A DNA stretch of 64,000 bases. Origin: Nostocales cyanobacterium Centralia_MAG_434. GTDB taxonomy: Bacteria > Cyanobacteriota > Cyanobacteriia > Cyanobacteriales > Nostocaceae. Each line of letters starts with the position of its first letter. The first letter of the stretch is position 1. Positions 33,715-36,133 of this stretch are shown here, piece after piece. The stretch is from NCBI GenBank assembly GCA_021324415.1, contig JAJPJF010000550.1, forward strand, positions 1 to 64,000, written 5' to 3'. The notes below the pieces were generated by a model. The model was given only the letters and a program-made list of their open reading frames with translations, did no database searches and had not been told where the DNA came from. The position numbers were made by a program, and so were the translations under genes.

Positions 33715-34035
33715 ATGTTGGAAATTAACAAAAGATTTGGTCAATTTCGCCGCAAAATGGCAATCATCATGTTGGCTGGCTTACTGTGGCTAGTTAGTAT
33801 ACCTGCGGCTTCAGTTCAAGCCGCAGGATATTTTTCGGGAGATTATTCAACCAAAGATAGTGTCTGGCAAAAGGGAGGAGGCAAAGCTTATGCGAAAAGA
33901 GAAATTGATAGTGAAAATTACTTAAAGAGTCGTAAGCATGCAGGCGAGCAGTCAAATAACCTTCAGACTCAACGACGTGGTTCAAAATATTACGACCGTG
34001 GTTCTCTTGAAAAAGAGCGAGAGCGGAATAGATAA
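33715..34035 (+). CDS. Small secreted hypothetical protein
   Basis: A 106-residue protein of unknown function. A basic start and a hydrophobic stretch (MAIIMLAGLLWLVSIPAASVQA, residues 15-36) form a clear signal peptide ending AAGY. The mature part (about 70 residues) is very hydrophilic and basic, rich in K, R, S and Y, without a known motif (KGGGKAYAKREIDSENYLKSR). It would be exported across the plasma or thylakoid membrane. It sits just left of the IS605-type element and is transcribed towards it. Confidence 0.6.
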   Translation: MLEINKRFGQFRRKMAIIMLAGLLWLVSIPAASVQAAGYFSGDYSTKDSVWQKGGGKAYAKREIDSENYLKSRKHAGEQSNNLQTQRRGSKYYDRGSLEKERERNR

Positions 34036-34098: not shown

Positions 34099-34124
34099 AT
34101 AGGATAACAGTACAGTGACATACT

Positions 34125-34156
34125 CCCGACGCTCATGCTGACGCATAGAGCGCGGG
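34125..34156 (-). ncRNA. Right-end hairpin / presumed 3' end of the TnpB omegaRNA
   Basis: CCCG-A-CGCTC (34125-34134) pairs with GAGCG-CGGG (34148-34156), and inside it ATGC pairs with GCAT around a TGAC loop. It overlaps the last codons of tnpB. In characterised TnpB elements the guide RNA derives from the 3' end of tnpB plus the element's right end, with the guide taken from the flanking DNA. Here that flank would be immediately below 34115. RNA production is inferred, not seen. Confidence 0.5.
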
Positions 34157-35362
34157 CTTCTCAGTGACTCCTGCTATTGCATCGGACGTTACCTGAGCTT
34201 TACCGACGGAATGCCCTACCGCCAGATATTTGATATTGATTGCTGCATTGTGGTCACGGTCTAGTGTCAGTCCACATTCAGGACAGATATGAATCCTGTC
34301 CTTCAGTTGTTTTGGGACTTTTGTACCGCATCCAGAGCAGTTTTGAGAAGTGCCGTTTGGATTCATTGCAATTGCAAGCAACCCGGCTCTTTCAGCCTTG
34401 ATTGAGAGAATTTGCAGGAATTGACCCCATCCAACATCATGAATTGATTTTGCCAATCTCGTCTTGGCGATTCCTTTGATATTCAGCTTTTCATGTGCAA
34501 TGTGCTTTCCTTGCTGTAAAAGCTTGTTGGCGGCTTTGTAATGAAAGTCTTTGCGAGTATTCGAGACTTTCAAATGTGCTTTAGCGACTCGTTTGATTGC
34601 CTTTTTGCGACGATTGGAACCTTTCTTTTTGCGAGACAAAGAACGCTGCAACCGCTTCAGTTGTTTCTCAGACTTCCGATAGTATTGAGGGATTTCTACT
34701 TCTTGTCCTGAATCGTCTACCAAGAAAGACTTCAATCCCATATCAATCCCGATGGTGTTTTCCATTGATGGAGTATCAGGCGTAAGAACGGGAACGGAAG
34801 CATCTTGCAACGACAGCGTAATGTAATAGCCGTCTACTTTCTTGGTAATCGTAGCCGTCTTTACCTTGAATCCGTCGGGTAGTGGACGATGCAAAATCAT
34901 CTTCAGTTTGCCAATTTTCGGAAGCTGGATGAATTTCCCACTGATGTGTTCTGGTTTAATAGGGTCTGGAAAAGCAATTGAGCGAAATCGTCCTTGACCC
35001 TTGAATCTAGGCTTACCGCTTCTGTTGCCATTGCTATCGCCACTTAAAGTACGGTCAAACGCTTTCTCTACCCGTGCAATGACATCTTGCAGGGTGTGGG
35101 AAGGTAATTCCTTGTATTCGGGAAACCGTTTTTTGGAATTAACTAGATCTCGCTTCTGAGAATAGAAATCGGGACGGTCTTTTAATTCTGGTAAATAGCA
35201 AATTAATGGACAAGCATTAATATCACAACGATTCTGCTCATACCAAGTGAACCGTTCCGCTAACCGATAATTATATTGACGACGAGCAAGTTCAAGCCAG
35301 TGATCAATTGTGGCTTGCTGTGTTGTCGTCAATCGTAATCGGTATTGGTAAGCAGTTCTCAT
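34133..35362 (-). CDS. tnpB: RNA-guided endonuclease TnpB of IS605 family
   Basis: A 409-residue TnpB, ancestor-type relative of Cas12. The N-terminal wedge/REC region spans about 1-200. The split RuvC domain keeps all three catalytic acids: D207 in TIGIDMGLKSF, E291 in AHEKLNIKG and D370 in LDRDHNAA. A zinc ribbon uses C342, C345, C360 and C363 (CSGC ... CPEC). Length is in the active range and no frameshift is present, so it is probably functional with an omegaRNA from its 3' end. It is divergent from tnpA with 56 bases between the starts. Confidence 0.95.
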   Translation of the reverse strand: MRTAYQYRLRLTTTQQATIDHWLELARRQYNYRLAERFTWYEQNRCDINACPLICYLPELKDRPDFYSQKRDLVNSKKRFPEYKELPSHTLQDVIARVEKAFDRTLSGDSNGNRSGKPRFKGQGRFRSIAFPDPIKPEHISGKFIQLPKIGKLKMILHRPLPDGFKVKTATITKKVDGYYITLSLQDASVPVLTPDTPSMENTIGIDMGLKSFLVDDSGQEVEIPQYYRKSEKQLKRLQRSLSRKKKGSNRRKKAIKRVAKAHLKVSNTRKDFHYKAANKLLQQGKHIAHEKLNIKGIAKTRLAKSIHDVGWGQFLQILSIKAERAGLLAIAMNPNGTSQNCSGCGTKVPKQLKDRIHICPECGLTLDRDHNAAINIKYLAVGHSVGKAQVTSDAIAGVTEKPALYASA

Positions 35363-35418
35363 TTGAGCGTGCTTTATCTAAGCTACACTGACTATAGCTC
35401 ATATATTTAAAAGTGCCT

Positions 35419-35829
35419 ATGAAAAATGATTTTGTTTCTAGTGGTAGAGCTATATCTGACATGAAAGCACATTTGGTCTTAACAACTAAATATAGACGCA
35501 AGGCTTTCACAGGCGAGATACTCAAACGGTTGCATGAAATTCTATTTGACCTTTGTCAAAAATGGGATTGTAAACTGATTGAGTTCAACGCACAAGAAGA
35601 TCATATTCACTTACTGTTTCAGTACTACCCGCAAATGGACTTATCCAAATTCGTCAATAACATTAAGTCAGTGTCTAGCCGTCGAATCCGAAGCGAGTTT
35701 GCAGAACACATCAACAGCATTTATTGGCAAGATGTACTTTGGAATGAATCGTATTTTATCGCGTCATGCGGCGGAGTTACTGTCTCGGTACTGCGTCAGT
35801 ACATTGAAAATCAAAATGCACCCGCCTAG
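35419..35829 (+). CDS. tnpA: IS200/IS605 family transposase TnpA (Y1 HUH)
   Basis: A 136-residue single-strand transposase. The HUH metal-binding motif is H62-I-H64 in EDHIHLLF, and the catalytic tyrosine is Y128 in VLRQYIENQ. KAHLVLTTKYRRKAF is the usual N-terminal strand and YWQDVLWNESYFIASCGG the usual segment before the tyrosine helix. Length is typical (130-155). The ATG at 35419 is preferred to a GTG two codons upstream. The enzyme would excise and insert one DNA strand, recognising the end hairpins. Confidence 0.95.
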   Translation: MKNDFVSSGRAISDMKAHLVLTTKYRRKAFTGEILKRLHEILFDLCQKWDCKLIEFNAQEDHIHLLFQYYPQMDLSKFVNNIKSVSSRRIRSEFAEHINSIYWQDVLWNESYFIASCGGVTVSVLRQYIENQNAPA

Positions 35830-35881
35830 ATGCACAGGAGATTTACTCGTTTCCTCTATGTCTTCCGACCAATGCCGTTAG

Positions 35882-35951
35882 GCGAGGGAGGAAGACTGTC
35901 GTCAACTCCCTCGCATTCTTCCCGACGCTCACCCTTCGGGTAGAGCACGGG
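35882..35951 (+). repeat. Two hairpins at the tnpA-side end of the element
   Basis: GCGAGGGAG (35882-35890) pairs exactly with CTCCCTCGC (35906-35914). Next to it, CCCGACGCTC-ACCC (35921-35934) pairs with GGGT-A-GAGC-A-CGGG (35938-35951). The second hairpin copies the core of the one at the tnpB end. The first could stop tnpA transcription or be part of the transposase recognition structure. Confidence 0.65.
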
Positions 35952-36133
35952 GCTGCTGCTGTTGAAGCTCATTGTTCCACGCTTTGCGTGGAATTTTTGT
36001 GCAATCTTAACTTTGGAACAGGCGATCGCCAAACTTTAACCTACAAAGATTTCTTAAGGGAAAAAATAGAAATTATGCTACCAGATGTGGGCTATTCTGG
36101 AAACAATCAGAGATTTGCCGAAATGTTGTGACG

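What the first reader, a model, noticed from the sequence alone, without database searches (positions are those of the whole stretch)
34115..35955. Apparently intact IS605-type element with active-looking TnpB and a presumed guide RNA
Seen: TnpB keeps D207, E291, D370 and the zinc ribbon; TnpA keeps HIH and Y128; hairpins of related sequence (CCCGACGCTC core) stand in the same orientation at both ends, one overlapping the tnpB stop. Known: TnpB is an omegaRNA-guided nuclease whose guide comes from the flanking DNA. Inference: the guide would be the bases just below 34115.
Basis: partly seen in the sequence, partly recalled or inferred. Interest (0 to 1): 0.55.

Follow-up and report, generated by a model that had tools for sequence, protein, structure and literature searches.

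The report
Intact IS605 element with guide RNA
This is an ordinary, intact-looking cyanobacterial jumping gene that carries an RNA-guided DNA-cutting protein and its guide RNA; the more interesting part is that the same genome and its relatives also hold short jumping pieces that carry the guide RNA without the cutting protein.

Summary
Window 34115-35967 is a 1,853-bp IS200/IS605 element with divergent tnpA (+) and tnpB (-), an LE and an RE hairpin, and intact catalytic residues. The target motif is TTGAG (15 of 19 copies); the window copy reads ATGAG. The last ~111 nt of the element (34115-34225, minus strand) form an RNA scaffold supported by compensatory change (20 of 32 pairs). The guide is therefore inferred to be 34114 downwards. 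TnpB is under purifying selection. This is a new member of a known kind. No RNA data exist here, so function is inferred.

Beyond the finding: the same scaffold occurs without any tnpB at 6 of 17 model matches in this genome, and at 28 of 30 examined loci in four relatives. Many are multi-copy 240-530-bp elements with a different flank per copy. One (contig C55) has an empty site in three relatives. These look like guide-only elements that would need TnpA and TnpB from elsewhere. Whether they use TnpB is untested.

The parts
34115..35967 (-). Whole IS200/IS605 element, 1,853 bp; LE at the high end and RE at the low end when read on the tnpB strand
   Evidence: Ends fixed by copies in the genome and by relatives:
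34133..35362 (-). tnpB, 409 aa, RNA-guided nuclease family; D207, E291, D370
   Evidence: dN about 0.08-0.19, dS about 0.86-1.32 against five relatives
35419..35829 (+). tnpA, 136 aa, Y1 (HUH) transposase; H62, H64, Y128
34115..34225 (-). omegaRNA (reRNA) scaffold: stem 1, compound stem 2, RE hairpin, then GGGAGTATGTCAC; overlaps the tnpB 3' end
   Evidence: Covariation; single-sequence fold z -3.05; codon identity among same-residue pairs 0.85 in aa 378-409 against 0.59 in aa 1-377; no Rfam family at gathering score
34125..34156 (-). RE hairpin (contains the tnpB stop codon)
   Evidence: compensatory change in relatives
35921..35951 (-). LE hairpin, same orientation and related sequence
35968..35972 (-). 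Target motif / expected TAM, here ATGAG (family consensus TTGAG)
   Evidence: 15 of 19 copies TTGAG; 5-nt length from the empty site of a related element
34099..34114 (-). Inferred 16-nt guide, TGTACTGTTATCCTAT
   Evidence: Flank directly after GTCAC; occurs once in the genome at up to 1 mismatch; guide role is inference from PMC8612924
35974..35994 (+). Terminator-like hairpin just outside the element; probably belonged to the gene ending at 34035 before insertion
   Evidence: consensus match only

Best explanation
[quoted passage not shown] TnpA (a Y1 transposase) recognises the LE and RE hairpins on one DNA strand, excises a single-strand circle and inserts it 3' of a TTGAG-like pentamer. 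TnpB binds an RNA made from the 3' end of its own gene plus the RE; the flanking bases that follow GTCAC serve as guide. When the element is excised, the restored site (target motif plus guide match) is cut by TnpB, and repair from the sister copy restores the element. Shown here: gene content, residues, ends, target motif, covarying scaffold, selection on TnpB. Inferred: transcription, guide use, cleavage and retention.
For: Families and residues. Ends and target shared by 19 LE and more than 20 RE sequences. 20 of 32 scaffold pairs have two-sided changes; 134 two-sided cells against 38.5 in shuffles, and all slid controls fall far below. Synonymous sites are constrained at the tnpB 3' end and dN/dS is low. 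Partial copies at 97% and 99% identity at contig ends suggest recent spread. Published: reRNA of about 150 nt from the tnpB 3' end and RE with about 16 nt of flank as guide, TTGAT as TAM (PMC8612924, passages); guide follows a conserved UUCAC in another TnpB (PMC11043419, passages).
Against: The window copy's motif is ATGAG, not TTGAG, so its own donor joint may be a poor TAM and TnpA site. No empty site was found for this insertion (217 genomes of the family). No second full-length copy is assembled; the two near-identical copies are fragments at contig ends.
Confidence: 0.9

Rival explanations
1. The genes are intact but this copy is stranded: its target motif has changed to ATGAG, so TnpA can no longer excise it and TnpB has no cleavable donor joint; it persists as a fossil or as a source of proteins for other copies.
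For: ATGAG in the window against TTGAG in 15 of 19 copies.
Against: GTGAG and CTGAG also occur (L113, L115), so the first base may be tolerated at insertion; the sister copy at C195 has TTGAG.
Confidence: 0.25
2. The conserved 3' region reflects protein or DNA-end constraint only, not a guide RNA.
For: The region encodes the TnpB C-terminus, and the RE hairpin is needed by TnpA (established for the family).
Against: The stems covary across relatives and are kept in copies without any tnpB; synonymous sites are constrained.
Confidence: 0.04
3. The tnpB-less scaffold copies are plain deletion remnants (PATE-like) that move with TnpA and keep the scaffold by recent descent; TnpB never uses them.
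For: PATEs derived from IS605 elements by core deletion are known (PMC3119063, passages). Many copies are near-identical, so little time has passed. For 2 of 11 pairs compared the scaffold is less conserved than the interior.
Against: In 8 of 11 pairs stems 1+2 are more conserved than the interior, up to 0.99 against 0.78 (1 tie); two-sided changes keep pairs in 17 such copies (9 of 32 pairs).
Confidence: 0.5

Closest known systems
ISDra2 (Deinococcus radiodurans), IS200/IS605
   Same: Y1 TnpA, TnpB with the same catalytic triad, reRNA from tnpB 3' end plus RE, pentamer target TTGAT
   Different: tnpA and tnpB are divergent here; target TTGAG; scaffold sequence not compared with that of ISDra2
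ISHp608 / IS605 (Helicobacter pylori)
   Same: HUH/Y1 transposase, subterminal hairpins in the same orientation; divergent tnpA/tnpB arrangement (recalled)
   Different: Target TTAC there (PMC8612924, passage); TnpA only distantly similar
ISSoc10-type cyanobacterial elements
   Same: AP018282.1 of Chondrocystis sp. NIES-4102 carries an 81%-identical tnpB annotated as 'ISSoc10, orfB transposase'
   Different: Whether the window element is ISSoc10 itself was not tested; ISfinder was not available
PATEs of Haloquadratum (PMC3119063)
   Same: Transposase-free IS605-derived elements with near-terminal palindromes, some fused by core deletion; like the C512, G183 and G088 one-hairpin copies here
   Different: The cyanobacterial 240-530-bp copies also keep the whole guide-RNA scaffold

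Membership tests
IS200/IS605 (IS605 group) | Y1 HUH transposase with catalytic Tyr | tested here: met
IS200/IS605 (IS605 group) | Subterminal hairpins, not inverted repeats, same orientation | tested here: met
IS200/IS605 (IS605 group) | Insertion 3' of a short motif without target duplication | tested here: inconclusive
   Constant TTGAG at LE in 15 of 19 copies; clean empty site only for the related C55 element, none for the window copy
TnpB / OMEGA nuclease | RuvC D-E-D triad and zinc ribbon | tested here: met
   guided_TnpB 296.6 bits, cut-off 100
TnpB / OMEGA nuclease | Structured RNA from the RE ending at the element boundary | tested here: met
   Structure and boundary by comparison only; no transcript data
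TnpB / OMEGA nuclease | RNA-guided DNA cleavage next to a TAM | not testable with these tools
   Needs biochemistry
PATE-like non-autonomous element (C55, C189, C512 and relatives' copies) | No transposase gene, near-terminal palindromes, several copies with different flanks | tested here: met
   tnpA absence was read from element length and ORF lists, not searched separately in the relatives' copies

The most novel reading that the evidence does not exclude
In these cyanobacteria a few full elements support a larger set of guide-only mobile elements: short LE-scaffold-RE pieces, each with the guide of its own insertion site, that borrow TnpA to move and TnpB in trans to be retained, so one nuclease polices many insertion sites in the genome.
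Probability: 0.4. Interest if true: 0.7.

Novelty: new member of a known kind. Interest (0 to 1): 0.42.

Why it matters
The element gives a natural TnpB with an expected TTGAG TAM and a defined scaffold, useful mainly as another family member. The tnpB-less scaffold elements matter more: they make it directly testable whether TnpB acts for non-autonomous elements in trans, which bears on why TnpB is so common and on the step from a selfish nuclease to a nuclease with many guides.

Tried and rejected
Rfam scan of the window: no family at gathering score. Cargo-gene idea for the 145-aa antisense ORF in the C55/C189 element: rejected, no Pfam family over its cut-off, no plasmid match, and the frame is broken in the G020 relative L215. 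Empty site for the window, C195/C459, C512, C189 and L093 insertions: no clean one found. For L093 one listed match (G415, query 1573-1703) crosses the junction point by coordinates, but that place was not aligned; the two L093 loci aligned stop before the junction. Only C55 gave an empty site. Second target for the window guide: none in the genome at up to 1 mismatch. RNAalifold on all 33 tnpB-less copies (A2) gave only a weak fold (-3.5 kcal/mol) because distant groups aligned badly; the structure test was then restricted to the 17 that align well (A3), a selection made after seeing A2. One search used only 60 of the TnpB places listed, so its 'no TnpB' label was rechecked on DNA. The motif-counting scripts misread or missed some LEs; the count of 15 of 19 is read from the sequences printed and, for the window, with L120 and L124 (same left flank) counted once. 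Model R1 was itself built with three tnpB-less copies (C189, C55, C441) and two decayed ones (C255, C420), so finding those five again is no independent evidence.

Full report
What was checked. The window lies in an 8.4-Mb, 551-contig genome (contig C485). It belongs to the same family as a genome that shows the L093 insertion at 100% identity at nearly the same coordinates as Scytonema sp. NIES-4073. tnpB and tnpA are open and divergent and match the expected families. Alignment to solved structures gives D207/E291/D370 = D191/E278/D361 of ISDra2 TnpB and H62, H64, Y128 = the HUH motif and Y127 of ISHp608 TnpA. Residue numbers in the solved chains were counted from the printed alignments.

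Ends. A DNA search of the own genome found, besides the window, an RE fragment at contig C459 (97%), an LE fragment at contig C195 (99%) and shorter matches; the two fragments lie at contig ends, where near-identical repeats usually break assemblies. Comparison with these and with relatives shows that homology at RE stops exactly after ...GGGAGTATGTCAC and the next base differs between copies. At LE the constant block begins at (T)TGAG. Of 19 LE sequences (18, the window), 15 read TTGAG, one each TTGAA (L095), GTGAG (L113), CTGAG (L115) and ATGAG (window). For a related element (C55), three relatives (L160, L171, L163) keep the uninterrupted sequence. Comparing them indicates that the G of TTTAG belongs to the host side, so the target is five bases long. 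By analogy the window element starts after ATGAG, at 35967, and its target is 35968-35972. The ISDra2 target is TTGAT (PMC8612924, passages).

Guide-RNA scaffold. RE regions of 27 loci were aligned (A1). RNAalifold gives 32 pairs, 20 with at least one two-sided change. Against 500 shuffles, 134 two-sided cells compare with 38.5 +/- 4.6 and covariation 0.436 with 0.142; the slid controls lie at 0.049-0.101. One measure, further pair types, does not exceed the shuffles (355 of 500). The structure was derived from the same alignment, which favours it over slid versions. The scaffold covers aa 378-409 of TnpB; there 85% of same-residue pairs use the same codon, against 59% elsewhere (nine sequences). 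tnpB dN/dS against five relatives is about 0.08-0.15 (from the dN and dS). Published work places the guide directly after the RE (PMC10278001, passages; PMC8612924, passages), so the guide is inferred to start at 34114. The 16-mer occurs once in this genome at up to one mismatch.

Scaffolds without tnpB. A covariance model (R1) finds 17 matches in the own genome. Four lie next to a tnpB frame (C485, C442, C155, C271; tnpB places), one is the contig-end copy C459, two have tnpB remnants (C255, C420), six have no tnpB by tblastn with nine TnpBs (C55, C189, C441, C164, C231, C208), and four are essentially a single hairpin (C512, C163, C489, C470; sequences). The weakest matches (C271, C470; E 1.7e-4) could be chance. 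C55 and C189 are two copies of a 486-bp element, 94.7% identical, with LE, scaffold, RE and different flanks. C512 is one hairpin with the outer part of LE on one side and the outer part of RE on the other; like L111 and L118 it looks like a deletion between the two hairpins, as described for PATEs in Haloquadratum (PMC3119063, passages).

Relatives. R1 matches in 35 of 40 genomes (E <= 0.001). In four of them (G004, G006, G020, G047) 52 matches were listed, out of 72 counted. In a first linkage count 22 had a TnpB and 30 did not (with an incomplete TnpB list). All 30 were then fetched with 2.5 kb upstream. Same-strand tnpB remnants upstream were found in 2 of 30 (L227, L228); the hits in L205 and L206 are the scaffold itself, the one in L222 is on the other strand and the one in L219 is on the other strand at the downstream end. 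Only the best hit per locus was printed. Many of the other 28 form multi-copy families whose homology stops at the RE: three copies of about 330 nt in G004 (94-97%), seven related copies in G047 (most over 282-366 nt, up to 100%), and families of about 240-530 nt in G006, G020 and the own genome. Of the 17 copies printed at LE, the three of G004, the seven of G047 and three of G006 (L206, L208, L211) show TTTAG or a close variant such as GTTAG or ATTAG before a constant start; for the other four (L205, L209, L214, L220) the LE was not placed. In 17 well-aligned copies the same structure is kept, with 9 of 32 pairs changed on both sides, 35 two-sided cells against 10.0 in shuffles; these loci were found with a model of this structure, which biases the test. 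In 11 pairs that I chose, stems 1+2 are more conserved than the interior in 8, about equal in 1 and less conserved in 2.

Reading. The guide-only elements are the part worth following. That TnpB serves them in trans is a hypothesis. Ten paper searches in the held library listed no paper on tnpB-less guide elements of cyanobacteria as far as titles, abstract starts and the passages read show (passages of PMC6006769, PMC10278001, PMC10711439, PMC3119063, PMC9956272, PMC11870625, PMC8612924, PMC11043419). Subscription papers are missing; from memory, orphan omegaRNAs are known for IscB, and transposase-free IS elements have been noted beside TnpB in Geobacillus, so the idea is unlikely to be wholly new.

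Noticed in passing
L140/L018 (contig C55) and L141/L006 (contig C189): Two copies of a 486-bp LE-scaffold-RE element without tnpA or tnpB, 94.7% identical, at different sites; the C55 copy interrupts a sequence that is uninterrupted in L160, L171 and L163.
   Followed up: yes
L205-L226 and L229-L234 (G004, G006, G020, G047): 28 guide-RNA scaffold loci without a same-strand tnpB within 2.5 kb upstream, many in multi-copy families with different flanks.
   Followed up: partly
L005 (contig C512), L111 (G183), L118 (G088): About 60-nt single-hairpin elements made of the outer LE and outer RE halves, probably from deletion between the two hairpins.
   Followed up: partly
window 33715-34035 and 35974-35994: A 106-aa ORF with no Pfam or NCBIfam match ends 80 bp before the element; a terminator-like hairpin stands just beyond the other end, so the insertion may have separated a gene from its terminator.
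   Followed up: partly
own genome G000: Heavy TnpB load: 37 matches to the window TnpB and 11 to TnpA, with many tnpB pieces at contig ends.
   Followed up: no
contigs C441 and C164:87104 (L142, L146): A second tnpB-less pair; a conserved stretch (ACAATCTTTGT...TTGTTCAACTG) precedes the scaffold and could be part of the RNA or its promoter.
   Followed up: no
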